From: a virus
DNA length: 27,749 nucleotides
IMG/VR virus record: IMGVR_UViG_3300030388_001463
Coordinates: 1-27,749 of that record
Reading direction: 5' to 3' (one strand)
The notes under the pieces are model-generated. The model was not told the DNA's origin, ran no database searches, and was given only the letters and a program-made list of their open reading frames with translations. A program made the translations under genes and the position numbers. Positions 11,569 to 27,749 of the stretch are shown here, piece by piece (within the stretch, counting starts at the first letter, position 1; each line of letters starts with the position of its first letter).

Positions 11569-11789
11569 TATAACAATCCTATTAATCCTTCAATAACAAT
11601 TAAACCAACGGCCCCCACCGTAGTTAAAACAACCCAATAGATTTTATCTATCTTGCCACCCAATTTCTCCACGTCTCTGTGCACATGTAAAACGTCTTGC
11701 TTTAAGTTTTCTACTTCTCTTTTCACCCCAGTTATATGTCCTTGTATTGAAATTATATGTTCGCGTTCTGTTTTAGGTTCCATTTCCAT
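11568..11789 (-). CDS. XhlA-like holin accessory: coiled coil with C-terminal membrane anchor, 73 aa
   Basis: Residues 8-48 are a continuous amphipathic helix (HIISIQGHITGVKREVENLK, LHVHRDVEKLGGKIDKI), and residues of about 49-73 (YWVVLTTVGAVGLIVIEGLI) form one C-terminal transmembrane helix. This architecture is that of haemolysin XhlA-type proteins, which act in phage lysis. It sits directly before the M15 endolysin and both junctions are TAATG overlaps, which supports a lysis cassette. Whether it forms the hole itself or only assists cannot be told; no second holin is visible in the window. Confidence 0.72.
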   Translation of the reverse strand: MEMEPKTEREHIISIQGHITGVKREVENLKQDVLHVHRDVEKLGGKIDKIYWVVLTTVGAVGLIVIEGLIGLL

Positions 11790-14700
11790 TATACAGTTCC
11801 CCTCTGTCTTTGTCGAATAAGTTGTTCGTCTCTATCTAATAAAGCACTTTCCGTAGATGTCAATCCCGTTGCTTGATCTACTACACCTGCTGCTGGTTGC
11901 GCTGCAGCTACATCAACTGGTTTTGATTCAGGCAGCGGTGCTACTGGTGGTGGCGCTTGAGATATTTCTTGCGTTGTAACAGGAGCTTCTACTGCAGATT
12001 GTTGCTCAGGTTTTTTATTTTGTTCTTCAAATTTTTCAAAAGATAAATAATCCCATTTATTTTTTTCAGACTCTAAAGCACCAAATGGATGAAAATAAGA
12101 AAAACCATAACTTCTTGCATCAGGATCGTTTCTTTTTATTTTGGTATATCTACCTTCAAGACCGCCTCGGCCCCAAGAAACAGCTCTATATCTACCAGAC
12201 ATAATTGCACCAACTGTTAATTTTGATAAACCACGACCAGAAAGAACGGTGATAATTTTAGCGTCAGTCATAAATCTATTTGCCCGTAAGTTTTTTACCA
12301 TTTTATAAAATTCATATTGTTGCCTAAAAGCTTGTTCATTTTGAACTCTATATTCCTTTACGATTTGTTCTGGTCCTCTTTGTCGCCAATCTTTTGCACT
12401 ATAAAAGCCTCTACCCATTTTAGGTTGAACTAAGCTTCTTGCAAACTCTCCCATTTTATAATCAAAATTAGCTGGTATATCTATTTTTACATCCGATCCA
12501 CCAAGTAGTTTTATTATTTCAGAATTTAATTCTATAGGCTGCCCTGATCCAGATACATCTCCTTGTAATGCGTTAAAGATTCTTTTACCCGTGCTAACAA
12601 TACCAGGTTCAATAGTAGTAAAAAAATGTGCCATGGCTTTGTCAAACTTTTCACTGTCTAACATACCTTCATTCCAAATAACACTACCTTCACGGGTTTT
12701 TCCATTTTTAGCTTCTTGAAAAGCCTCTAAACCAATTGGTATACTTAAAAAAGTTCCAGTTGTTGCATCCCACAAAGGACTAATTGTTTTAAACATACTT
12801 TCAAAAACATTTGTTGGTATTTTACTAGGGTCTAGTTTTCTATTAGCATCATAAAAAATTTTTAATTTTTTTAATTCTTTTCTTCTAGCTTGCATTTCTT
12901 CAGAAGAAGGATCAATACCTTGGTCTATTAAAGTTAAATATTCTTCTCTTTTATTAGCTAAATTAGTATCTACATTAGCTCTTTCATTAGACGCCATTAA
13001 AGAATTAGCTGATGAAATAAGTATGTCGTATGGATTAAACCTAGATAAATCAAACACTGTAAAAACACCATTTTTAATATTACTAGTAGGCACTAAAGTA
13101 CTGTTTTTCATATAGTCTGGTGCAAAAAATTGTTTAAAAGAATCTACGTTAGTCTGTGTAACATTAGTCATAGCATATCCAATTCCTTGTACTCCTTGAT
13201 TAAGGGCACCTAAAGTAATTGCTTGCCCCGCTAAACTTCGGTAACCCATTTCTCTAAGACCAACATTATCCGAAGCAATATGTTTCATAGCTATACTACT
13301 AGTTGCAAAACCAGTTCTTAATATTTCAGCCGTAAAAGATACAAAATTACCTAAAGGTAATTTTCTTAATGCTTTAATTACTTCAGGTACTTTACTATAA
13401 GTAGGGTATGTTTCTCTTAGTAATATTGCAGCCGCTTCTTCTATACCATCTTCAAAAGTTTTAATACTACCGGTATTTATATTTCTTGTACCTATATCAA
13501 CACCATGTGTGTTTTTCAGGTAAGAAGAAATTTCATCAAAGTTTTTAAACACGCCTTTTAATTGTGACATATAAAATTCATGGCCATACCATTTCCAAAC
13601 GTTATCACCTCCTGCATATATTCTTGTAGCTTGTTTATAAAATTTAGAATTGTTAGCAGCTTTTGCTAAATCTCTAAATGATTTAAAACTACCTTTTTTT
13701 AAATCTTCTAAAATTGCATTAAGTTCTGAAGCTACAATATTTTCATCTAAAACACCTAGTTCAACTTTTCTTTGAGTTCTTTTTATTAAACTAGCTTCAT
13801 CAACAGTTTTACCTGCACCAAATATATCATCCATTATAATTTTAAAAGAATCTGTTACCGAAGCACCCCCACCAATATGACCATTAAACATAGGAAAAGC
13901 ACCTGCACTTAAAAAATTACGAGTTTGTGTAGCAGGAGAGAATACCGTCTTACCTGTTTGCACTGCTGCCTTATAGGCAATAAGGCCTTGATACATTTCA
14001 ACTTGTAATAAACTATCCAACACACCACCGGTACCTAAAAAAGTATTAACCATTTCTTTAGAACCATATAAACCAACCGGACCACCTTTAGAGGTTAATG
14101 CTTCTGATTCTAACAATCCAAGACCAGGAACCCTACCTATTGGTAAAGGCTCAATTATTCCTGCCGCTGTTGCTTCTGCTCTAGTTTCAAATAAGTAACC
14201 ATCACGTAAACCTTGCTTAGCAGTTTCGCGCCACGATCTTAAATTAGAAGTTTGCGTTACTAAACTACCTGCAGTAGTCATAACAGAATTACGTAAATTA
14301 TTTTCTTGACCTAATAATTCTCTAAGAACTTTTGGTAGTTCTTCTCCAGTGTTAATAATAATATCATCGTTTCTAACAAACTCTTTATTAATTCTATTTA
14401 AAACATCTAGAGGGTCCCTGCCTTCTGTTTTACCTAAAGCAATAATACTATCTACATTTTGCTGTGCAAAATTTCTAATTGCTTGTTCACCAGGTAAGTC
14501 ACTGCCTTTTAAAGCTACCTCCCTTAAGTCTTCATTCTTTCTAATTATATTAACCATAAAATCTACCGCGTTATTTACTACTTCTGGTGAAGCTTTGTAT
14601 GCTGCATTATTAAAAGTAGCAAAAGACATTCTCATATATTTATCTAAATTAGATTCTATACTTTCCCTTAAACCTCCGCCCATAGGTAGTTCAGATGCAT

Positions 14701-17700
14701 ATGTTTTTTTAATATCATCAAATGTATTTTTTAAAGCTTGAGCATATTCTTGTAACTCTTCAGGTAGTTGTGATTTTTTTAAACCACCCTGTAAAAATTC
14801 TAAAACTTGGTCCATAAAATATTTTTCTCCCGCTGGAGAAGTAGTACTTTTATTGTATCTATTTTCAAAACCTTTAGCTAAGTCATAAGAACGTTTTTGT
14901 ATAGCATCTAAATAACTTTCAATTTCTTTAGATTTAGAAGTAATATATCTCTCTGCACCGCCATCTAAATAGAATTTATTAACTGCTTGGTTACCACTAT
15001 CTCGAAACCATTTTAAAAAATTATCAACTTTTTTAAGTCCTTTTTTTAAAGGGTCTTTAGAAGTAACGTCAAATAATCTCCAATCTTTATAATCAGGTAA
15101 CTGACCAGCAACTCCTTTTTTAAAAGACGCAGCAAAAGCTCCTTTACCGCCTAATACACCAGCACCTATTCTAGCAATAATATCTTTACCTAATAATGAG
15201 GCTACATCTAAACCACCCCTTGCCAAACCTTGCCCAATGTCTTTAACCACTGGGGTATTAGCAGCAAGATAAGTGCCACCTTTTAAAACAGCTCCAGTAG
15301 CTTTAACTCCTACACCACCAAATGCTAAAGCAGGTTTTAATAAAACATTTTTACCTATAGCACCCAATGCCGGACCTACAATTGGAAACACACCTCCTAT
15401 CATAACACCCTCTGCACCAAACCTTAATCTGTTTTTAAAGTTAGCTTTAACTAAATCTATACCAGATAAGTCATCTGTTTTTTCTAATTTACCTACTAGT
15501 TTAGAACTTAACAAAGGATCATCAAACATAGTAGACAAAGTATTATATGGACCTGACGCAATAAAATCACCAATACCAAAAGCAACTCCTAAACTACCGG
15601 AACGTTTAGAAATATTAGATATTTCTGTAATTAAGGGTTTATAACCTTTACCATATGTTTTATGAGTAAAAGCACTATACTTTTTAGTTGATACTAATTT
15701 TCTTAATACATTAGTAAATTTAATAGCAGCGCTTCCTGGTATACCGTATTCTATAGCAATTGATCCTATTTTACCTAAAAATGTTTCTGGTTCAGACAAA
15801 TCTGCTTCTGAAAATTGACGTCTAACCTCATCGGTAAATTCTGTTTTAATTACACTCTGGCCTTGAATTTTACTAGGTATATAGTCTATGGCGTTAACAA
15901 TAGTATCAGTAATACCGGCAGCTAAGTCAACAACACTAAACATTAAACGTTTAGCCCCACTAGCTTGTGCACGGTTAAACTCACTTATCATACTTATAAA
16001 TTCTTGTTCTTTAGGTGTCTCTTGAACACCACCAAACGAATATTTATATTTACCAGCTCCTTTAGCACGTTCATACATATCATATGTTTTTGGAAAATAT
16101 TTTTCCATTTCAATATTATTTTCCGTACCACTACGTATACCATTATATAAAAATTCTATTATTTCTAGAGCAGGAACTTTTGGTCCTGCCGTTGCTTGGG
16201 TAACAGCAGGGTTTTGTGTTATTAATAAAGGTAATTCAGAAAGTTTAAATCTTGTAGGTTGTTTTGGATTAAGTTGTTGTGTAAGAATTTTTTCCATATT
16301 TTTTTGTTGTAACTTTAAATTGTCATAATAAGGTTCAGTTAACAATGAAATTTTTGAAACCCTATCTTCATATATTTGTCTAATATCTTTTTGTACTGGG
16401 TTTAATGCTTGTGCAACAGCATACTGTATAGTACCAGGAATTGTAGAAGGTTTTATTGGATCAATGTCCGACTCTTTAAAAATATCATAATCAGTTCGCA
16501 CTCTATCACCGTCAGCATAAAAAGTTCTTGATATTGGTGTGCCACCCATAGAGTTGCCTTGCTGGACAAACTCTTCTAAAGTTAAAGGTAATTTATTATT
16601 TTTATTTTTTGGTATTTCAAAAGCAAAACCAGCTTCATCTGCTTCCCCAACTAAATCCATTCCAAAATTTTTATATTTTTCAATATTACTTTTACCATAA
16701 TAACTTGTAACTTTTTTACTATCCATAACTTTAGCCACAGTACCTTTTATTGCAGGATTCTTTTTTATAGCCGCATCTAACATTTCATTATATATTTTAA
16801 TAAATTCCTTTTTTGTTAAGTCACCATTTTTATATTTGCCTATCTGCGCAGACAATCTGCCTTGTAGTTGTGGTAAAATTAATTCATTTGTTCGTCTAGT
16901 TACAGGAACTATAAAATTTGTGTAAGAAGGCATTTTATAAATAAAACCAGTTGATAAAGCTACAGGCTCATGAACTCCTAAAGAACTAAGATCATCTCCT
17001 TTCGTTCCAAGTTTAGATCTAGCCTTTTTTACTAATGTTTGATAAGAGATAGGTCTAGATAAAGTTTGATTTATAAAATCTTCAGCAAAAGTACGTAAAG
17101 TTTTAGAGGCTGGAGAATTAAAAGGAGCATTAGCCATTTCGTTTAAAAGTTTTGTTGCTTGTTTTGTATTTTTTCTTAAACCTACAAAAGGATCATCAAC
17201 AAAAGTTCCTGCCATACGAGCGGTTTGATCACGAGGAATTAAAACTTTTTGTCCGTTTATTTTTTGTAAAACCCTAAGTATCGCATTATTAAATTGTGCC
17301 GCCGTCATATCTAAATTAGTAAAGTCTGCGTAGTCAGGTAATCTACCGGAGTTTAATGCCTCATTAAATTTTTTATTTGTTCTTAATATATTTATATTAT
17401 TTGCTGTTTTTGTAGTAATGGGTGATTGTCCTCTGTTTTTGTAAATATCTTCTATTTTTTTAATATCTTTTTGCGTAGGGTCTTTGTAAGAAACACCTAT
17501 CTTTCTATTAGGGTCTGAAACGGGTTTTAATATTGTTTTTAAATTTTCATAAAGATTAATTTTGTTTTGACTAGGTGCAAATTTTCTTGGGTCTATTGGT
17601 GTAAAATTTGGTATTTTATTTGATAATAATTTATTTAATTCAGAAGTATTTATTTTTTTTGTACTAGCTGCACCAAGACTACTAGGTTTAGTATTAGCTG

Positions 17701-18385
17701 TATTTAAAAACAAAGAACCAGCATCTGGTTCATCTAAATATTTTAAATCACTTAATAACTCTCCTGTTTTTTTTCCGGCAAACGCACCACCTTTCATTAG
17801 ACCACTACCTGCAGCTCTAAATAAAATATCTTCTATTGGCATCGAAGCTGCAAGTGCTCCAAAATAACCAAGGCTAGCCATCTGATCATGTTTTCTTATA
17901 AAAGCATTAGCCTCATCTACAGTCATGTCAAATTTTGCTGCCATCTCTTCGTCAACCACATAGTCTCGACGTAGCCTACCAATGTTTTCCATGGTAAATA
18001 CATCGTCAAGAAATTCACCAGGTAGATCATTAGGAAGGATAGCTGCTAGTTGAGCGGTATCTGCAAGCGCATTAGTAGCGCCTCTACTAAATCTACCATA
18101 ACCACTTTCACCAGATAACTTACTCGCCATTGCTGGATCAGCGCGCATATTTTTTTGTCTTATAAATTCGTTAAGGGTGGGTTCGTGGTTAAGATAAAAC
18201 TCACGGTCTTTACCCGTAATTCTATTTATGCCATCTTCATTAACTACAATTTTATTTATATAGTCTTCGTAGGTTGTAGGAAAATTATCGTATCTGTATT
18301 CAGGATCAGTCATACCCTTATATGTTTCCACATAAGGTCTAACCATTGTTTGAAGTATGCCTTCTTTTTTTGGCGTGTCAGCCAT
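11789..18385 (-). CDS. Giant internal virion (ejection) protein, 2198 aa
   Basis: By position after the tail and core genes and before lysis, and by size, this resembles the long internal proteins of podoviruses that are ejected into the host (compare T7 gp16, about 1300 aa). Most of the chain is predicted helical and polar. Residues of about 980-1050 are glycine/alanine-rich and hydrophobic (GGVFPIVGPALGAIG, ALAFGGVGVKATGAVLKGG), possible membrane-inserting helices. Near 1478-1505 is FSPATQTRNFLSAGAFPMFN, a phrase like one I associate with large phage polyvalent proteins. The C-terminal 85 residues are rich in Pro, Gln and Ala and probably disordered. I see no transglycosylase, peptidase or polymerase motif. 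It shares a base with the holin-like gene (TAATG) and starts two bases after the 398-aa gene. Confidence 0.8.
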   Translation of the reverse strand: MADTPKKEGILQTMVRPYVETYKGMTDPEYRYDNFPTTYEDYINKIVVNEDGINRITGKDREFYLNHEPTLNEFIRQKNMRADPAMASKLSGESGYGRFSRGATNALADTAQLAAILPNDLPGEFLDDVFTMENIGRLRRDYVVDEEMAAKFDMTVDEANAFIRKHDQMASLGYFGALAASMPIEDILFRAAGSGLMKGGAFAGKKTGELLSDLKYLDEPDAGSLFLNTANTKPSSLGAASTKKINTSELNKLLSNKIPNFTPIDPRKFAPSQNKINLYENLKTILKPVSDPNRKIGVSYKDPTQKDIKKIEDIYKNRGQSPITTKTANNINILRTNKKFNEALNSGRLPDYADFTNLDMTAAQFNNAILRVLQKINGQKVLIPRDQTARMAGTFVDDPFVGLRKNTKQATKLLNEMANAPFNSPASKTLRTFAEDFINQTLSRPISYQTLVKKARSKLGTKGDDLSSLGVHEPVALSTGFIYKMPSYTNFIVPVTRRTNELILPQLQGRLSAQIGKYKNGDLTKKEFIKIYNEMLDAAIKKNPAIKGTVAKVMDSKKVTSYYGKSNIEKYKNFGMDLVGEADEAGFAFEIPKNKNNKLPLTLEEFVQQGNSMGGTPISRTFYADGDRVRTDYDIFKESDIDPIKPSTIPGTIQYAVAQALNPVQKDIRQIYEDRVSKISLLTEPYYDNLKLQQKNMEKILTQQLNPKQPTRFKLSELPLLITQNPAVTQATAGPKVPALEIIEFLYNGIRSGTENNIEMEKYFPKTYDMYERAKGAGKYKYSFGGVQETPKEQEFISMISEFNRAQASGAKRLMFSVVDLAAGITDTIVNAIDYIPSKIQGQSVIKTEFTDEVRRQFSEADLSEPETFLGKIGSIAIEYGIPGSAAIKFTNVLRKLVSTKKYSAFTHKTYGKGYKPLITEISNISKRSGSLGVAFGIGDFIASGPYNTLSTMFDDPLLSSKLVGKLEKTDDLSGIDLVKANFKNRLRFGAEGVMIGGVFPIVGPALGAIGKNVLLKPALAFGGVGVKATGAVLKGGTYLAANTPVVKDIGQGLARGGLDVASLLGKDIIARIGAGVLGGKGAFAASFKKGVAGQLPDYKDWRLFDVTSKDPLKKGLKKVDNFLKWFRDSGNQAVNKFYLDGGAERYITSKSKEIESYLDAIQKRSYDLAKGFENRYNKSTTSPAGEKYFMDQVLEFLQGGLKKSQLPEELQEYAQALKNTFDDIKKTYASELPMGGGLRESIESNLDKYMRMSFATFNNAAYKASPEVVNNAVDFMVNIIRKNEDLREVALKGSDLPGEQAIRNFAQQNVDSIIALGKTEGRDPLDVLNRINKEFVRNDDIIINTGEELPKVLRELLGQENNLRNSVMTTAGSLVTQTSNLRSWRETAKQGLRDGYLFETRAEATAAGIIEPLPIGRVPGLGLLESEALTSKGGPVGLYGSKEMVNTFLGTGGVLDSLLQVEMYQGLIAYKAAVQTGKTVFSPATQTRNFLSAGAFPMFNGHIGGGASVTDSFKIIMDDIFGAGKTVDEASLIKRTQRKVELGVLDENIVASELNAILEDLKKGSFKSFRDLAKAANNSKFYKQATRIYAGGDNVWKWYGHEFYMSQLKGVFKNFDEISSYLKNTHGVDIGTRNINTGSIKTFEDGIEEAAAILLRETYPTYSKVPEVIKALRKLPLGNFVSFTAEILRTGFATSSIAMKHIASDNVGLREMGYRSLAGQAITLGALNQGVQGIGYAMTNVTQTNVDSFKQFFAPDYMKNSTLVPTSNIKNGVFTVFDLSRFNPYDILISSANSLMASNERANVDTNLANKREEYLTLIDQGIDPSSEEMQARRKELKKLKIFYDANRKLDPSKIPTNVFESMFKTISPLWDATTGTFLSIPIGLEAFQEAKNGKTREGSVIWNEGMLDSEKFDKAMAHFFTTIEPGIVSTGKRIFNALQGDVSGSGQPIELNSEIIKLLGGSDVKIDIPANFDYKMGEFARSLVQPKMGRGFYSAKDWRQRGPEQIVKEYRVQNEQAFRQQYEFYKMVKNLRANRFMTDAKIITVLSGRGLSKLTVGAIMSGRYRAVSWGRGGLEGRYTKIKRNDPDARSYGFSYFHPFGALESEKNKWDYLSFEKFEEQNKKPEQQSAVEAPVTTQEISQAPPPVAPLPESKPVDVAAAQPAAGVVDQATGLTSTESALLDRDEQLIRQRQRGTV

Positions 18386-18387
18386 AG

Positions 18388-19584
18388 TTAAGCTACCTGT
18401 GCAGGCAGCTGTAAATCAGCGTTATACCTTTGATTGAATCTTCCTATATCTTCTTGGGTTTGTATTTGTGCAAAATCAATTAAAGCCTGTTCGCTAGTTG
18501 CAATTAATCTAATAACATCATCAGAAACTTCTCTTGGTAATCTTGCCCTTAGTTCTTCAAAAGATAAAGGTGAAGATCCGGTGTTTGCTTGCGCTTGCAT
18601 AACAGGTGGAGAACCGGGATCAGGATTAGGACCACTACCTGGCTCATAAGGTCCAGTGTTAGTAGTCATAGTGCTGCCATTAGCATAACCAATACGACCA
18701 CCATCTGCTTCCTCAACACGTTTTTTTTCAGCACTAAGATCAGTACCTTGTAGTATTCTTTTTTCTTGCTCAAATAAAATTTTCTTTCTTCTAAAAAATT
18801 CTATTGAATACTTTTCATAGTTTGTATCGTTAGGTAAAGGCACATCCTCTAAACCAAGCGCACCCAAAGTTTCTGTTTCTGCTTGGCTATTTAACGTCAT
18901 TTGACTTAAATCACCAAGCACTGCGTCTTTAGGTAAATTTAATTCTAGAGCACCATACATTTTATTAATAGATAAAGTTATTAAATTATTTAATCTAGCA
19001 AATTCTGAATCATAATTTCCAGCACTAGGGTCAAGGCTATTTATTTGTGCTGATAATTCAATATATCCTTTTTCAATTTCATCATATTTTTCAAATTGAC
19101 GATCAATTTTAAATACTTTACTGTCTTGTAGTTCTTGCGCAGCGCCACCTTCGTAAGCTGCTGCTGCTATACCTAGTTGAGTTTCTCTTTGACTTTGATC
19201 AAAAGCTGCTCGACCCATGTCATATTTTGTTTTTGCATCCGTTCTTGAATCAGCAGAGGTTGCTAAATCTTTTCCTAAACCACTTAAAGCTGGTCCAACT
19301 GCTGCTAGTGTACCTTTAAGACCCGAGCCACGACCCTCAGCGCCAAGCATTTCGCCACCTGCTGCTGCTATTCGTAACCAATCCGCAGCACTTAAACCAG
19401 ATTTTGGTTCAGCAACATCATATGTTGCACCGCTCATAATATCTTCTGACTCAGTTCTAAACTTTTCAACAGCATCACCTTTTTTATAATTTTGTCTCGG
19501 TTGTGCAAAGCCAGAAATAATACCACTATTAGTATTTGGCGAACCACCCATTCTAAACATCGGTCTTCTTAATGGTTTACTCAT
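18388..19584 (-). CDS. Putative internal virion protein, 398 aa, with GGRIGYANG motif
   Basis: The protein opens with RRPMFRMGGS, a motif echoed in the 624-aa protein (RPNFNYG). Its centre (residues of about 100-290) is helical. At 295-303 it carries GGRIGYANG, shared with the 624-aa protein, followed by a Gly/Pro-rich linker (PYEPGSGPNPDPGSPP) and a final helical segment (LPREVSDDVIRLIATSEQAL). There is no enzyme motif. It lies between the 317-aa and 2198-aa genes, coupled by TAATG upstream. I infer a core or ejection-complex component; a scaffolding or head-tail role is not excluded. Confidence 0.65.
   Translation of the reverse strand: MSKPLRRPMFRMGGSPNTNSGIISGFAQPRQNYKKGDAVEKFRTESEDIMSGATYDVAEPKSGLSAADWLRIAAAGGEMLGAEGRGSGLKGTLAAVGPALSGLGKDLATSADSRTDAKTKYDMGRAAFDQSQRETQLGIAAAAYEGGAAQELQDSKVFKIDRQFEKYDEIEKGYIELSAQINSLDPSAGNYDSEFARLNNLITLSINKMYGALELNLPKDAVLGDLSQMTLNSQAETETLGALGLEDVPLPNDTNYEKYSIEFFRRKKILFEQEKRILQGTDLSAEKKRVEEADGGRIGYANGSTMTTNTGPYEPGSGPNPDPGSPPVMQAQANTGSSPLSFEELRARLPREVSDDVIRLIATSEQALIDFAQIQTQEDIGRFNQRYNADLQLPAQVA
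18676..18702 (-). repeat. GGRIGYANG motif copy (398-aa protein)
   Basis: Encodes GGRIGYANG. The DNA is nearly the same as the copies at 20831-20863 and 21734-21763 in another gene, differing mostly at third codon positions, which suggests protein-level selection or old duplication. Confidence 0.7.
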
Positions 19585-20537
19585 TATCCAAATCCTTTAT
19601 TAAATGCACCAGCGATACCAGCGATACCAGTTCCAGTACCTAAGATAGTTTGTAAGGTACTAGGTGGCGTTGCTTGTGAAGTGCTGTATTGAGTTGACGC
19701 ACCGATACCACCCATTAGTGGTGCAAATTGTTGTCCCGCAAAACCAATCCGTTGTTGCTCTTCGTAAGCTGCTTCACGATTAGCTGTAGCTTGTGCATCT
19801 AGTTGTGATTGTCTTAATGCTTGTTGTTGCTGACCCATGCCCATAAGCTGTGCTGACTGTTGTTGTTGTAATCCTGGAACTAGTGTTGCTAAACCTTGTT
19901 GGTTTTGCATACCTGCTTGTGATGCTGCTTGTGCTTGTGCAAAATTCTGTGCTCTTAAATCTGCTTCCATTTGTGTTGCGCCTAAAGTTGTTTGTGCATC
20001 ATACACTCCACGTTGAACCCCTTCACGACCACCACCAAAAGCGCCTGCAGCTATTGCTGAATCAGCAATAGATTGTCTACCTTGAGCTCGTTGATTTTGA
20101 TAAGATGCTTGAGTGGCATCAATAACTTGTTGTTGGTATGGCGACATATACGGATCCATAGCTGACGTTACGCCAGCACCAGTTACTTGGCCTGTAGTTG
20201 GATCAACTCCAGCTAATCTTTGTGATTCATCTAAGAAAGGTTGAAAGGCACCTATGCCTGAACCTTGACCAACGCCAGATGCTAATCCTGTGGTTGGGTC
20301 ATAAGATACATTACCAAGCCCTGCTTGGTTTGCTTGTGATTGTATTCCAGCTTTTTGAAAAGCTGATAACCCTGCAACTGAGGGTGCAAATTGACTAGTG
20401 TCAACTGCTTGGCCTAAAACCCCTGGAGTAACAACTCCAGTAGCTTGATTTTTGCTACCAAATAATTTATCTGTATATACTTTACCGGCCTGTTCGATAA
20501 ATTCGGCGGGACGGGTTCTGGTAATTTCTTCAGCCAT
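19584..20537 (-). CDS. Gln/Ala-rich putative internal virion protein, 317 aa
   Basis: The middle (DPYMSPYQQQVIDATQASYQ, then IADSAIAAGAFGGGREGVQR) resembles, as I recall, sequences found beside portal and ejection genes of marine podoviruses, where a 'MNPY...' helix and 'GAFGG.R' recur. Residues of about 190-270 form a long Gln-rich amphipathic helix (GLQQQQSAQLMGMGQQQQAL). The C-terminus is glycine-rich with a hydrophobic patch (IAGIAGAFNKGFG). Start and stop share bases with neighbours by TAATG on both sides. Role inferred: DNA transfer or inner-core protein, comparable in position to T7 gp14/gp15. Confidence 0.65.
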   Translation of the reverse strand: MAEEITRTRPAEFIEQAGKVYTDKLFGSKNQATGVVTPGVLGQAVDTSQFAPSVAGLSAFQKAGIQSQANQAGLGNVSYDPTTGLASGVGQGSGIGAFQPFLDESQRLAGVDPTTGQVTGAGVTSAMDPYMSPYQQQVIDATQASYQNQRAQGRQSIADSAIAAGAFGGGREGVQRGVYDAQTTLGATQMEADLRAQNFAQAQAASQAGMQNQQGLATLVPGLQQQQSAQLMGMGQQQQALRQSQLDAQATANREAAYEEQQRIGFAGQQFAPLMGGIGASTQYSTSQATPPSTLQTILGTGTGIAGIAGAFNKGFG

Positions 20538-22411
20538 TAAACTGTTGCCTCCATCTGTTCTTGTAGGTCATACAAAGCTCTAGCCCCAGCTCTTGGGTCT
20601 GCTTTACCGGTTAAGGCTTTACCTATACCAGCAACTGCTCTGTCATTCAAGACAAACTCGTCTTTTCCGACCATTGCCGGTACATCATCTGCTCGTGGCT
20701 CGGTGCCAAGTTCTATAAAACCTCCGGGTCTTAAATCCATTTGCATGCCTGGTGGCATATTTGGTGCAATCGGATCACCTTGTGGTGTTTGTCTACCACT
20801 ACCATAATTAAAGTTAGGTCTATCCGGCATACCACCATTAGCATAGCCAATACGGCCACCGTTAGACATACTTTGAAGTTGAGAGAAAGGTCCACCACCC
20901 ATAATACCCATATTAGTACCTAATAATTCTTGAAGAGTACCTCCGGTAACACTTGGTTGAAAATTTCCTCCACCATTATTATTAGCAGGGACTAAAACTT
21001 CTTGAGGTTTAAATTGACTACTTACATTACTTTGAATGTCTTGGGTAGCACCATCTAAACCAGTTTTAACTGCGTTCATAATATTTCCTACCATACCACT
21101 TTGATTGGAATTACCACCACCATATCCTGGTGTAGTTGGCATCCTCATATTGGAATCCATACCTCCTCCAAGAATACCTCCAAGACCCGCAAGAGGTCCC
21201 ATTCCGGCAAGGTTAGTTGCTGAAGGTTGTTGTTGAGGTTGTACCCCGCCACCATAATTAAAATTAGGTCGGTTTATCATACCACCCATAGCTCTACCTG
21301 GACGAACATATCTACCTAAATCACTATAATAGTCTTGAAACATTTGTGCTTTTTGTTCAGCCTCAGCTGCAAATCTAGCATTCATTTCATCACGTTTTTG
21401 TCTTTCTGATTTTCTAACATCTTCCATAGTTCTGTCAGCATATAAAGAATTTATTTCTTTATCTAATAATTTTTCCATTAAACTAATTTCGCCATCGTTT
21501 TCTGAATCTCTACTTCTGTCAGCAGTTCTTTTACGCATGTCAATTATTTCATTTAATTTAGTTTCTAACTTTTCTATTTTTTCGCTGCTATAGCGGTTCT
21601 CGTTTATATAAGTACCAACTTGTGTTTCTGGATTTTCTTTATAAAACTCTGTCATGTTTAAACTGTCACGGTCTCTATCACCATATACATCACCCGCGTA
21701 ATCTTCAGGAATCATGTTACTATAATTTTGTGAACCATCAGCAAAACCAATACGGCCACCGTTAGCTAAACTAGGGTTTTCTAAATCACTATTATAGTAG
21801 GACATAAATTGATTAAAGTCTGCTTCGCTGGCTTCTGGGTTAGAACCATAGTAATAGCTACGTGCATAGGCTAAAGACTCTTCATAGCTTAGACCTTGTT
21901 GTCTAGCGTTTTCTGCAGCACGGGCCGCTAGGTCTCGGCTAAATCTTTCCACTTCATTATAACCAAGTTTTGGTGCTGCTTGCACACCAATAGTAGAAGC
22001 ACTTGCCATAGAAATAGGCTCGTCAAGAGGAGCACTAGCAAATGATCTAGCTCCTTCTATTATTTTATCTTTAGTTTTTAAATCTCCAAAAGCAGTTTTA
22101 TAGTCCGTGCCTTCTAATAATTTACCATCGGCTCCCGTTAAAGATTTAGCAATAGGAGCATTTCTAGCTGCTCCAAAAATACCTGACATTAAGGATGATT
22201 CTAATCGAGTTCTGTCACTAGTTAATTCTTGAGTTCCAGCATCAGCAAGAAACGCGCCTATACCTTGTCCCAACATACCTGTACCACCAACACCAAACAT
22301 ACTTGCTATCATCGGTCCACCAAAAATAGAAGCCAGCGCCGGTAAGAAGGGTGCTGCCTCTTTAGGTATTGCCTTCCTAATTTTCTTTTTAATTTTACTA
22401 AAAAATCCCAT
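20537..22411 (-). CDS. Glycine-rich virion protein with GGRIG repeats and a DDVPAM C-terminal motif, 624 aa
   Basis: The N-terminus is basic (MGFFSKIKKKIRKAIPKEAA), then a hydrophobic glycine-rich stretch (FGGPMIASMFGVGGTGMLGQ) that may insert in membranes. NGGRIGFADG occurs at 217-226 and NGGRIGYANGG at 517-527. The related RPNFNYG occurs near 378 and 530. A long charged helix lies at about 255-365. The end carries GGFIELGTEPRADDVPAMVG, then KDEFVLNDRAV, similar to the 'DxVPAMLxxGEFVxxxxAV' phrase I recall from tape-measure and other phage structural proteins. The function is unproven. Context suggests an injected or tail-core protein. Confidence 0.65.
   Translation of the reverse strand: MGFFSKIKKKIRKAIPKEAAPFLPALASIFGGPMIASMFGVGGTGMLGQGIGAFLADAGTQELTSDRTRLESSLMSGIFGAARNAPIAKSLTGADGKLLEGTDYKTAFGDLKTKDKIIEGARSFASAPLDEPISMASASTIGVQAAPKLGYNEVERFSRDLAARAAENARQQGLSYEESLAYARSYYYGSNPEASEADFNQFMSYYNSDLENPSLANGGRIGFADGSQNYSNMIPEDYAGDVYGDRDRDSLNMTEFYKENPETQVGTYINENRYSSEKIEKLETKLNEIIDMRKRTADRSRDSENDGEISLMEKLLDKEINSLYADRTMEDVRKSERQKRDEMNARFAAEAEQKAQMFQDYYSDLGRYVRPGRAMGGMINRPNFNYGGGVQPQQQPSATNLAGMGPLAGLGGILGGGMDSNMRMPTTPGYGGGNSNQSGMVGNIMNAVKTGLDGATQDIQSNVSSQFKPQEVLVPANNNGGGNFQPSVTGGTLQELLGTNMGIMGGGPFSQLQSMSNGGRIGYANGGMPDRPNFNYGSGRQTPQGDPIAPNMPPGMQMDLRPGGFIELGTEPRADDVPAMVGKDEFVLNDRAVAGIGKALTGKADPRAGARALYDLQEQMEATV
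20831..20863 (-). repeat. NGGRIGYANGG motif copy (624-aa protein, second)
   Basis: Encodes NGGRIGYANGG, followed by MPDRPNFNYG. The RPNFNYG segment also occurs about 430 bases upstream in the same gene, where it is followed by glycine-rich sequence. Confidence 0.7.
21734..21763 (-). repeat. NGGRIGFADG motif copy (624-aa protein, first)
   Basis: Encodes NGGRIGFADG, with conservative changes Y to F and N to D relative to the other copies. It lies in a turn-rich region after a helical segment. Confidence 0.7.
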
Positions 22412-23081: not shown

Positions 23082-23246
23082 TTAATTTATAAACCAGTTT
23101 ATTTGTTCTTGTTCTTCTTTTAAAGATTGCTGAAACGTAGAATTTAATTGATCTACAATTCCAGTAATAGTTTTGTTAATTTGTCTTTGTGTACTAACAT
23201 CGTATTCAATTTTTGGTTCTGGTACTCTAACAATTATTTTACTCAT
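23082..23246 (-). CDS. Small helical protein between tail genes, 54 aa
   Basis: This frame is MSKIIVRVPEPKIEYDVSTQ followed by an amphipathic helix (RQINKTITGIVDQLNSTFQQ) and EEQEQINWFIN. The ATG shares a base with the stop of the 720-aa gene (TAATG), and the next gene starts directly after its own stop. These tight junctions are good evidence that it is translated. It is probably a small coiled-coil structural or chaperone protein; no family recognised. Confidence 0.65.
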   Translation of the reverse strand: MSKIIVRVPEPKIEYDVSTQRQINKTITGIVDQLNSTFQQSLKEEQEQINWFIN

Positions 23247-25408
23247 TATCTAGCTCCATCTGGTTTTACGTCTAAGAGAAAAGTTCCAAATCTCCAACTT
23301 TGTTCTACACCAGTATTCTCAATTTTAAAGTTAACATATCTACCTCTTGCTCTAGTGTCTACCTTTTCTGTTGCAGCAGTTATAGTAAACGGACTATATG
23401 TCGAAGTTGTATCTGTATTAGATGGAAAATCTTTAATAGCCAAAGTAACATCAGCGTTACCAACTAATGTTTTAAAGTCAGGTATAAATCTACTAACTGA
23501 TACAAACAAGCCACCTTCACTGTTTTGAACATTTAAATCATAGTCATATGAAGTTATAAAAGAAGTAACCGGAGTAACTGAACCATCTTCATTAGTTTGA
23601 TCGGTACCTATTTCATGTTCAAAATATTTAGTTTGACCTAATCCTGTCTCACCTAAGACTGCTGGAAAAGTACCAGTTAAGGTTGTGTCAAATTTAGTTG
23701 CATAAGGTTTTTGATAAATGTTAGCATCCATCCATGAACTACGTGGCTCATTAGATAAGGACCAAATACCACCTGGAACTTGAGCCGACTCTGCATAATT
23801 ATAGGTTACGGCTTTGTTATTAAAATCATTGTCTGTTGGATACCACCAAGTTATTTCCGAAAACAAATTGTTTAAACCGGCAGTCATTTGTTGACCTTTA
23901 GTCGTGTCTATATTATCAAATACCTCATCTTCTACTGAACAAGGTAAAGTTTTAACCGTACCATCATACATTAAGAAACCTTTAGAACTCATCCAATAAG
24001 CTACCCCATCTACTTCTACTGCTGCATTTTTACCAATTAAACCACAGTTGGTACCAACTTGTTCTATACCAAATATAAAAGGCGCTCCAATAAATTTCAT
24101 TGAATAGAGTGCATTATCGGTCCAAATTAAAATAGATTCTTTAGCTTTTAAAGCTCCAATAATTTTAGTACCATCTTGAATTCTTAAAGTACCGGCAGTG
24201 TTAGTTGAAGTTGGAGTATAGCTATTTATTTCTTCTTGTGCCGAAAATCTAATAAACATGTCATCTTGACTACTGGTAGTACCTATAGTTGTTTCTGTAC
24301 CTAAGTGTATTAAAAACCTAGTGGTAGGTGAAATAAGCGTGATCCTCGATGCTGTGGGATTGTTGCTAGTTGCAAAACCAGTAGTAGCAGTGGCCGCTCT
24401 AATAGTTAAAGGGCTCGCGGCTGAAGGGTTCCAGGTAAAGGTAGCACCATTAGCAATTGTTGCTATAAGCACTTCACCAAAATTATCTAAGGACCATAAA
24501 CCTGGTTCTAAAGTTGTTTGGTTAGCTGGTAGTGCTGTGCCCCAACCACTAAAATCAGTAGCATTGATAACAGTAGCACCAGAACTGTGGGCTGCAGCAG
24601 TGGTACCTAAAGCGCCTCTAGTTGCACTGGTCATAGTATTGGTACCTTTGCCAGTATAAATAATTAATTCGTTAGCAATGGCTAAAGTACCTGCAGTAGG
24701 AAAGCCAGAGTTAGATGTGACTGGAATAGTAGTTACACTATTATTAATACCTGAAGATAACGTATTTGTTAAAGCGGTAGATAAGTCTCCACCCCAAGAT
24801 CCAACACCCCAACCATAACCATAAGTTTGTTTTTGGGGTCCAACTTTTGCATATATATTTACCGTAGCTGAACCACCAGTTGAAATAGTTGCTTGTGCTG
24901 CAGCCGATGAAGTAATGGTAAAAGTAGTTGCGCTAGGTACAGTATTGACCATAAACACTTTGTTCTCAAAAAGATTAGCATTAAGGCCAGTACCACTTGG
25001 CATTGTTACTGCATCAAGTTCAATAATATCTTCTGCGGCTAAACCATGTGCTGATGAGGTAGTAATTGTTATAGCTGTTTTAGTATTTATAGTGGCTATG
25101 GTTGCACTGGTTTGTTGTAGGTCAGTATCAAAAGGTGTAATATCAAATAATTGACCTTCAAAATATAATAGTAAAAATTTATCAGTACCAAGGGCAATAT
25201 ATCTATTGCCAGTAATATCTAAAAAAGGATGTTGTGAACGAACTACACCAACAATACTATCACTAAGTAACGAAGACCACCCACCCACTTTTTCTGGTAG
25301 ACCATAACGAAACCTAATATTATTACTATCTACCCAACGGTTTTCTGCACCTTTAGTAGTGTTCTGTTTATCTATTCCTGGTAAAATTTTAAAGTCAAGG
25401 AGAGCCAT
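23246..25408 (-). CDS. Large tail / DNA-stabilisation protein (P22 gp10-like), 720 aa
   Basis: The N-terminus (PGIDKQNTTKGAENRWVDSN, then IRFRYGLPEKVGGW) matches, as I recall, the start of phage tail-nozzle or packaged-DNA stabilisation proteins of the P22 gp10 kind, a beta-propeller-like tail hub. Beta-rich repeats follow. An inserted region of about residues 90-190 (TKTAITITTSSAHGLAAEDI ... TTFTITSSA) resembles an Ig-like adhesion insert; another lies at about 205-275 (NNSVTTIPVTSNSGFP ... TSATRGALGTTAAAHSSG). The C-terminal half has WYPTDNDFNNKAVTYNY and VDTRARGRYVNFKIEN. There is no enzyme motif. It lies between the fibre genes and small structural genes and is probably a major tail component. 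Confidence 0.72.
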   Translation of the reverse strand: MALLDFKILPGIDKQNTTKGAENRWVDSNNIRFRYGLPEKVGGWSSLLSDSIVGVVRSQHPFLDITGNRYIALGTDKFLLLYFEGQLFDITPFDTDLQQTSATIATINTKTAITITTSSAHGLAAEDIIELDAVTMPSGTGLNANLFENKVFMVNTVPSATTFTITSSAAAQATISTGGSATVNIYAKVGPQKQTYGYGWGVGSWGGDLSTALTNTLSSGINNSVTTIPVTSNSGFPTAGTLAIANELIIYTGKGTNTMTSATRGALGTTAAAHSSGATVINATDFSGWGTALPANQTTLEPGLWSLDNFGEVLIATIANGATFTWNPSAASPLTIRAATATTGFATSNNPTASRITLISPTTRFLIHLGTETTIGTTSSQDDMFIRFSAQEEINSYTPTSTNTAGTLRIQDGTKIIGALKAKESILIWTDNALYSMKFIGAPFIFGIEQVGTNCGLIGKNAAVEVDGVAYWMSSKGFLMYDGTVKTLPCSVEDEVFDNIDTTKGQQMTAGLNNLFSEITWWYPTDNDFNNKAVTYNYAESAQVPGGIWSLSNEPRSSWMDANIYQKPYATKFDTTLTGTFPAVLGETGLGQTKYFEHEIGTDQTNEDGSVTPVTSFITSYDYDLNVQNSEGGLFVSVSRFIPDFKTLVGNADVTLAIKDFPSNTDTTSTYSPFTITAATEKVDTRARGRYVNFKIENTGVEQSWRFGTFLLDVKPDGAR

Positions 25409-26977: not shown

Positions 26978-27749
26978 TTATAAACCCTCCTTAAGGATTT
27001 GTATTTCTTGTTGTAGAGTTGTAACTGTAGCCGACAACTCTTGTACGGCTTTTACTAAAATAGGGACAATAGCTGTTTCACCTACTTCTTGTTGCCCATC
27101 TTCTCTTTCATACCACATACTAAAACCATCTTTTAATTCAGAGTGTGAATCAATTACAGCTTTTATTTCTTGTGCTATAAATCCGTGATTAAGTTTAGAA
27201 TTTCGATATTGCTCATCAGAACCTTGTTCATAGGCTCTTGACCATTCAGGAACTTCACCTTTAGTTTTCCAGTTATAAGTTACTGGTCTAAGATCATTGA
27301 TAACTGCTAGTCCAGCATCTGAGGTTTCAATGTTCTTTTTAAATCTTTTATCAGATACAGTAGCCCAAGTTACATTACCATTTGCGGCTCTTATATCATT
27401 TGTACCACGACCAAGAGTTGTAAACTCAGCCGCACAAGCTAAATCTGCACCAAGCCCTTGAGCTTGTCCAGAATTTGTAGCAGTAGCATTTGAATTATTA
27501 CCTATAATAGTATTTTGTGCACCATCTACATTAAGATTACCAGCTTGAAAACCCACATAAGTGTTCTCACCACCAGTAGTGGTTGCTCCGCCAGCACTCA
27601 TTCCCAAAGCCGTATTTTTATCAGCCGAAGTCAAAGCATCGAGTGAGTAGTTACCTACAGCAACATTTTGTTCACCACCATTGATTGCACCACCTAGTGC
27701 CCCTGTTCCAATAGCCATATTGTGGTTTTCAGTATCAGCAGCATCATAT
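26978..27749 (-). CDS. Partial tail spike/fibre with C-terminal peptidase S74 intramolecular chaperone
   Basis: The frame stays open to the window edge: ten codons (YDAADTENHN) precede the first visible ATG at 27718, so that ATG is internal and the gene continues beyond. The N-terminal visible part has repeats of about 17 residues of the YadA-head/Hep_Hag type (MAIGTGALGG, VAVGNYSL, TALGMSAGG, TYVGFQAG), a trimeric beta-roll. The C-terminal 125 residues are an S74 domain beginning SDKRFKKNIE, with the catalytic Ser codon at 27353-27355 and the Lys partner just after. It contains LNHGFIAQEI and ends in a coiled coil (ELSATVTTLQQEIQILKEGL). The domain trimerises the fibre and then cuts itself off. 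Confidence 0.9.
   Translation of the reverse strand, partial: YDAADTENHNMAIGTGALGGAINGGEQNVAVGNYSLDALTSADKNTALGMSAGGATTTGGENTYVGFQAGNLNVDGAQNTIIGNNSNATATNSGQAQGLGADLACAAEFTTLGRGTNDIRAANGNVTWATVSDKRFKKNIETSDAGLAVINDLRPVTYNWKTKGEVPEWSRAYEQGSDEQYRNSKLNHGFIAQEIKAVIDSHSELKDGFSMWYEREDGQQEVGETAIVPILVKAVQELSATVTTLQQEIQILKEGL

What the first reader, a model, noticed from the sequence alone, without database searches (positions are those of the whole stretch)
18676..21763. A short GGRIG(Y/F)A(N/D)G peptide recurs in two unrelated virion proteins
The peptide occurs once in the 398-aa protein and twice in the 624-aa protein. It is accompanied by a second motif, RP(N/M)F(N/R)(Y/M)G, at the N-terminus of the 398-aa protein and twice in the 624-aa protein. 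The rest of these proteins shows no similarity that I can see. I recall similar glycine-rich phrases in uncultured marine phage proteins but know of no described function. A shared short motif in otherwise different core proteins suggests a docking, sorting or proteolytic-processing signal, perhaps for packing ejection proteins inside the head.
Basis: partly seen in the sequence, partly recalled or inferred. Interest (0 to 1): 0.62.

Follow-up and report, generated by a model that had tools for sequence, protein, structure and literature searches.

The report
Shared tag on phage cargo proteins
A nine-residue protein motif recurs in otherwise unrelated proteins that marine phages appear to pack in their heads and inject into bacteria; it is real, almost confined to viruses, not described in the open-access papers searched, and most likely a loading tag, though nothing yet shows what reads it.

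Summary
GGRIG[YF]A[ND]G occurs once in the 398-aa and twice in the 624-aa protein, with RPxF..G copies; profile comparison finds nothing else shared but 13 motif columns. In 84,980 bacterial and archaeal species genomes only 43 exact matches occur (mostly porins and wrong frames), none in the viral context.

In viral contigs, and in two complete HTVC023P-type pelagiphages, the motif sits at two places: the ejection cassette (the window) and the genes between terminase and an SU10-like portal. In 156 loci chosen without regard to the motif it is found only there. Some carriers are recognisable injected-effector ('polyvalent') proteins (ART-PolyVal, InPase, Ntox15; PcfJ in a relative). It lies inside proteins, at termini, and at junctions where separate genes were fused, sometimes just before a Tat-signal-like segment.

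Best reading: a short tag that gives proteins a place in the virion (0.42). Rivals: fusion linker without a reader, or processing site. No reader, virion proteome or cleavage data were available, so function is inferred.

The parts
18676..18702 (-). GGRIGYANG copy in the 398-aa protein, just before its Pro/Gln-rich stretch and conserved C-terminal domain
   Evidence: both glycines (residues 295-296) invariant in 8 homologues, GGRI/GGRV in 7
21734..21760 (-). GGRIGFADG, first copy in the 624-aa protein
   Evidence: kept in all 8 orthologues
20834..20860 (-). GGRIGYANG, second copy in the 624-aa protein
   Evidence: followed by an insertion of about 98 aa in L174, and the region is missing or altered in L176 and L177
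19546..19566 (-). RPMFRMG, N-terminal RPxF motif of the 398-aa protein
   Evidence: [KR]RPMFRxGG starts most homologues
21251..21271 (-). RPNFNYG, first RPxF copy in the 624-aa protein
20801..20821 (-). RPNFNYG, second RPxF copy, 4 residues after the second GGRIG copy
18388..19584 (-). 398-aa carrier; positional homologue of HTVC027P gp84
19584..20537 (-). 317-aa DNA ejection protein between the two carriers; no motif here, but the L078 homologue has gained a motif-bearing tail
   Evidence: phrog_4287, E = 1.2e-9
20537..22411 (-). 624-aa carrier; homologue of HTVC027P gp82 through the C-terminal DDVPAM..EFV domain
11789..18385 (-). 2198-aa protein that ends the cassette; no motif; homologue of HTVC027P gp85 'putative structural protein'
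23246..25408 (-). 720-aa virion structural protein used as motif-blind anchor
   Evidence: phrog_3287, E = 4.1e-103

Best explanation
GGRIG[YF]xxG is a short linear tag carried by virion cargo, that is, by proteins loaded in the phage head and sent into the cell with the DNA. It is found in ejection-cassette proteins and in the variable multi-domain proteins encoded between terminase and portal. A conserved head or core component is inferred to bind it during assembly and so recruit proteins that share no fold; new effector domains enter this route when a gene is fused next to a copy of the tag. Shown here: the motif, its conservation, its near-restriction to viruses, its confinement to two gene clusters, its presence in recognisable effector proteins, and its position at module junctions and termini. 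Inferred: that these proteins are packaged, and that a reader binds the tag.
For: At least 120 IMG/VR stretches, all in frame, against 1 for the reversed motif. None of the 43 bacterial/archaeal genome matches has the viral context. 133 of 146 carriers lie in the terminase-portal or ejection setting; in motif-blind loci 66 of 242 genes at cargo positions and none of 891 at other listed positions carry it, still extreme after removing near-identical genes. Complete HTVC027P and 023Pt_psg01 genomes carry it in both clusters and in no other ORF of 100 codons or more. Carriers include ART-PolyVal plus lysozyme, InPase and Ntox15 proteins. Core kept at 78% where flanks keep 28%. Position free: N-terminal, internal, C-terminal, one to four copies.
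Against: No reader identified. No proof that the carriers are in virions. 39 of 74 non-redundant cargo-position genes at the portal lack the strict motif, although most have looser variants. HTVC023P shows no GGR[IVL]G copy in the 82% of its genome examined, including both clusters, so such phages can do without it. The core conservation figure may be inflated because local alignments are anchored by the motif.
Confidence: 0.42

Rival explanations
1. Permissive linker or hinge: a glycine-rich joint at which modules are fused or swapped, perhaps helping the proteins unfold through the portal and tail channel, with no dedicated reader.
For: Insertions of about 98 and 43 aa directly after motif copies and a deletion between RPxF repeats in 624-aa orthologues. 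A free-standing L057 protein starts exactly where fused homologues continue after the motif. Both AF2 models have very low confidence at the motif.
Against: A plain linker needs no near-invariant Arg, Ile and aromatic residue and would not be confined to two gene clusters. Some copies are at natural C-termini and link nothing. Flank composition is no more disorder-prone than random positions.
Confidence: 0.25
2. Proteolytic processing site: carriers are precursors cut at or near GG/RIG in the virion or after injection, freeing modules; in some proteins this would expose a Tat-signal-like N-terminus.
For: Motif at joints between modules that exist as separate genes. Tat-like [ST][KR]RxF[LMI]K plus hydrophobic stretch 4-15 residues after the motif, 37 matches in the set against 1 after shuffling. 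P1 DarA and DdrB show that packaged proteins can be processed (PMC12810830, PMC5512222).
Against: No prohead protease recognised in HTVC027P gp56-gp59 by Pfam or PHROGs. C-terminal copies would release only about 20 residues. Several copies per protein would give many small fragments.
Confidence: 0.2
3. Part of an ancient small structural element shared with tape-measure-like C-terminal modules (FAxGG...DSIPAMLS.GEFV), duplicated and spread, with a purely structural role.
For: DSL-LC04 has FAxGG variants in the same positional homologues. The C-terminal domain of 624-aa-type proteins weakly matches tape-measure PHROGs.
Against: With motifs masked, carriers still fall into 18-19 unlinked groups by single linkage, and about 90 when coverage is required. 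Many carriers lack the tape-measure-like domain.
Confidence: 0.08

Closest known systems
T4 capsid targeting sequence (CTS) of internal proteins and Alt
   Same: A short peptide shared by unrelated proteins that are loaded in the head and ejected (established knowledge)
   Different: The CTS is N-terminal, single and removed by the prohead protease; this motif is found anywhere, in one to four copies, and no such protease was recognised in the HTVC027P genes tested
Polyvalent proteins (Iyer et al. 2017, PMC5512222)
   Same: Some carriers are such proteins by Pfam domain (ART-PolyVal, InPase) and are encoded next to portal and terminase
   Different: The window's 398- and 624-aa proteins have no recognised effector domain; the paper's text has none of the terms 'linear motif', 'conserved motif' or 'linker'
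P1 Dar proteins (PMC12810830)
   Same: Several unrelated proteins co-packaged and co-ejected in a fixed order
   Different: Recruitment is attributed to DarA and Hdf; the passages read describe no shared peptide tag
Tape-measure-like C-terminal module (FAxGG, DSIPAMLS.GEFV)
   Same: The 624-aa family ends in a related domain, and DSL-LC04 has FAxGG in the same genes
   Different: GGRIG[YF] copies are mostly far from that domain, and occur in proteins without it
Tat (twin-arginine) signal peptides
   Same: [ST][KR]RxF[LMI]K plus hydrophobic stretch follows the motif in some carriers
   Different: Internal in all carriers seen but one, often KR not RR, weak Pfam score (0.0091)

Membership tests
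HTVC023P-type pelagiphage ejection cassette | Gene order 624-like, ejection protein, 398-like, large protein, then helicase on the opposite strand | tested here: met
   Window against HTVC027P gp82-gp87 and 023Pt_psg01
HTVC023P-type pelagiphage ejection cassette | Sequence homology of the cassette proteins | tested here: met
   624-aa C-terminus and 2198-aa protein match HTVC027P and 023Pt_psg01 by tblastn; N-terminal RRPMF shared by the 398-aa homologues
T4 capsid targeting sequence | Single N-terminal position | tested here: not met
   Copies are N-terminal, internal and C-terminal, one to four per protein
T4 capsid targeting sequence | Removal by a prohead protease | tested here: inconclusive
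   No protease recognised in HTVC027P gp56-gp59; not every gene was scanned; cleavage itself not testable
Polyvalent proteins | Several disparate effector domains in one chain | tested here: met
   Met for L079 (ART-PolyVal and lysozyme) only; L052 shows InPase alone as an effector domain
Polyvalent proteins | The same for the window's 398- and 624-aa proteins | tested here: not met
   No significant Pfam or PHROGs domain
Virion cargo | Protein present in virions and injected | not testable with these tools
   No virion proteome of these phages found
Tat signal peptide | N-terminal S/T-R-R-x-F-L-K followed by a hydrophobic region | tested here: inconclusive
   Sequence resembles it, but it is internal in all but the L057 protein; export not testable

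The most novel reading that the evidence does not exclude
A previously undescribed, fold-independent delivery ticket of an abundant marine phage group: one peptide, read by one conserved head component, admits both ejection proteins and a changing set of injected effectors, so that fusing a gene next to it is enough to recruit a new effector.
Probability: 0.33. Interest if true: 0.82.

Novelty: new variant of a known kind. Interest (0 to 1): 0.62.

Why it matters
How short-tailed phages choose which proteins to load and inject is poorly understood. A tag that can be searched by sequence would flag likely injected proteins in marine phages whose genes otherwise match nothing, and makes the loading question testable with a peptide, a pull-down or a virion proteome. 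It also gives an annotation rule: a gene with GGRIG[YF]xxG between terminase and portal, or in the ejection cassette, is candidate virion cargo.

Tried and rejected
DNA-level repeat or mobile element: rejected, codons of the copies differ synonymously. Bacterial origin: rejected, the 43 genome matches are mainly porin strands of Variovorax and relatives, GGSIGFADG proteins or wrong frames. Whole-length homology of the two proteins: rejected. Search of cultured phages with a 27-aa motif peptide: no match, too short to be informative. Joint alignment of 86 carriers failed. AF2 of the 398- and 624-aa proteins: mean pLDDT 49.5 and 39.1, motif regions below 50, shallow alignments; not used for fold searches. 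Disorder scale: no difference between motif flanks and random positions, so I do not claim that the motif marks disordered regions. Broad FAxGG pattern: enriched in cargo genes of DSL-LC04, near chance in Caulobacter phage RW and Roseobacter phage CRP-902. Count of protein termini near the motif (49 against 24.6 expected) is partly an artefact of contig ends, so I use only named cases with natural ends. An early ORF script gave wrong coordinates (seen, fixed); its sequences were right.

Full report
What is there. The window is a 27,749-base IMG/VR virus record, 36% GC. Its gene order matches HTVC023P-type pelagiphages: a structural protein (phrog_3287), small genes, a 624-aa protein, a DNA ejection protein (phrog_4287), a 398-aa protein, a 2198-aa protein, an endolysin, a helicase on the other strand, then primase, helicase and DNA polymerase. 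Profile-profile comparison of the 398- and 624-aa families finds only 13 shared columns, the motif itself.

More than chance. Every match lies in frame in a long ORF. The same residues in reverse order gave a single match. In 84,980 species genomes the exact pattern occurs 43 times, mainly in porins of Variovorax and relatives, in GGSIGFADG proteins or out of frame; none has the viral A[DENQ] before the glycines. Across 179 distinct sites the consensus is (A/K/Y)-A-(D/E/N)-G-G-R-I-G-(F/Y)-A-(D/N)-G (that tally includes a few sites from the bacterial loci, and the GGR[IVL]G[FYLM] core was fixed by the search). Codons differ between copies. Homologues at 25-35% overall identity keep 78% of the core and 28% of the flanks; local alignment may inflate the core figure.

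Where it is. Of 146 motif ORFs in 120 loci, 133 lie in one of two settings: beside the terminase large subunit and an SU10-like portal, or in the ejection cassette. Those loci were chosen by the motif, so I fetched 77 portal-anchored and 79 structural-protein-anchored loci without regard to it. There the motif occurs in 44 of 118 genes at portal -1/-2 and in 22 of 124 genes at anchor +3 to +6, and in none of the 891 genes at the other listed positions (sums made from its table). The loci are related to one another, so the counts are not independent; after removing near-identical genes the contrast stays extreme. Both settings belong to the same genomes: HTVC027P has the motif in gp41 and gp42 (terminase gp40, portal homologue gp43) and gp82, with RRPMFRKGG in gp84; 023Pt_psg01 has it in the gene after terminase and in both ejection-cassette homologues; no other ORF of 100 codons or more in these two genomes has it.

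What the carriers are. In the ejection cassette they flank the ejection protein, and in L078 the ejection protein itself has gained a tail with the motif. At the terminase-portal site they are large, variable proteins. Some have domains of injected polyvalent proteins: ART-PolyVal with phage lysozyme (L079), InPase (L052), and the toxin domain Ntox15 (L067); the DSL-LC04 protein at this site has PcfJ. Most marine carriers match nothing in Pfam or PHROGs. That they are packaged is inferred from position and from the polyvalent-protein literature (PMC5512222), not measured.

Behaviour of the motif. It occurs up to four times per protein, near the N-terminus, internally, and about 20 residues from natural C-termini in L057, L115, L008 and L060. 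In the 398-aa family it sits before the conserved C-terminal domain, except in L027, where it is near the N-terminus. In 624-aa orthologues, insertions of about 98 and 43 residues directly follow motif copies, and two orthologues lack the stretch between the RPNFNYG repeats. A free-standing 437-aa protein of L057 starts MNRRAFIQGLIGLASMPAIG; the same module directly follows the motif in fused proteins, with what look like old start methionines at some joints, as in GGRIGLKDG-MNRRTFMK and GGRIGFADGG-MSRRTFLK. That module resembles a Tat signal. Related forms are the N-terminal [KR]RPMFRxGG and the C-terminal GGLxYLMG or GGIARMLGE, and the looser AxGGLMRxGYAxGG.

How it most likely works. A peptide that follows destination and not fold, sits anywhere in the chain, and is kept while its surroundings change behaves like a recognition tag. 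Both carrier sites encode proteins expected inside the head near the portal, so a tag for loading or docking in the head core is my first choice (0.42). A reader-free linker (0.25) explains the junctions but not the near-invariant Arg, Ile and aromatic residue, nor the C-terminal copies. A processing site (0.2) explains the junctions and the Tat-like segment, but no prohead protease was recognised in the head genes tested and C-terminal copies make little sense. A purely structural element is less likely (0.08). None of these is excluded.

Compared with what is known. The proposed function resembles the T4 capsid targeting sequence, but position and copy number differ, so it is not a member. 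Some carriers are polyvalent proteins, but the window's own two proteins cannot be called that on present evidence. No paper in the held library contains the motif strings tested, and no virion proteome of these phages was found there.

Noticed in passing
L005, L015, L044, L050, L054, L067, L083, L087, L121 and others, 4-15 aa after the motif: A Tat-signal-like segment, [ST][KR]RxF[LMI]K plus a hydrophobic stretch, inside terminase-portal proteins; 37 matches against 1 after shuffling. In L057 the same module is at a true N-terminus.
   Followed up: partly
C-termini of many genes upstream of the portal, e.g. L187, L191, L198 and HTVC027P gp41: Conserved C-terminal ends GGLxYLMG[LM], GGIARMLGE, GGLAGLLGE or GGLASLF; 40 in the cargo set. 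Possibly a second signal.
   Followed up: partly
L175:5001-6164, directly after the first motif copy: The 43-aa insertion contains the near-repeat KLLGNFTGPAIGS, which suggests a recent tandem duplication.
   Followed up: no
window 20537-22411, residues about 560-624: C-terminal DDVPAM..EFV domain shared with many marine carriers and with the DSL-LC04 'tail tape measure protein'.
   Followed up: partly
L167:23405-26083 (HTVC027P gp42): Contains what looks by eye like an HNH-type nuclease stretch (NPLEVDH...NLRVIP) and a weak helix-turn-helix match below the Pfam cutoff.
   Followed up: no
window 26978-27718: Tail-spike-like protein with a C-terminal Peptidase_S74 (endosialidase chaperone) domain.
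   Followed up: no
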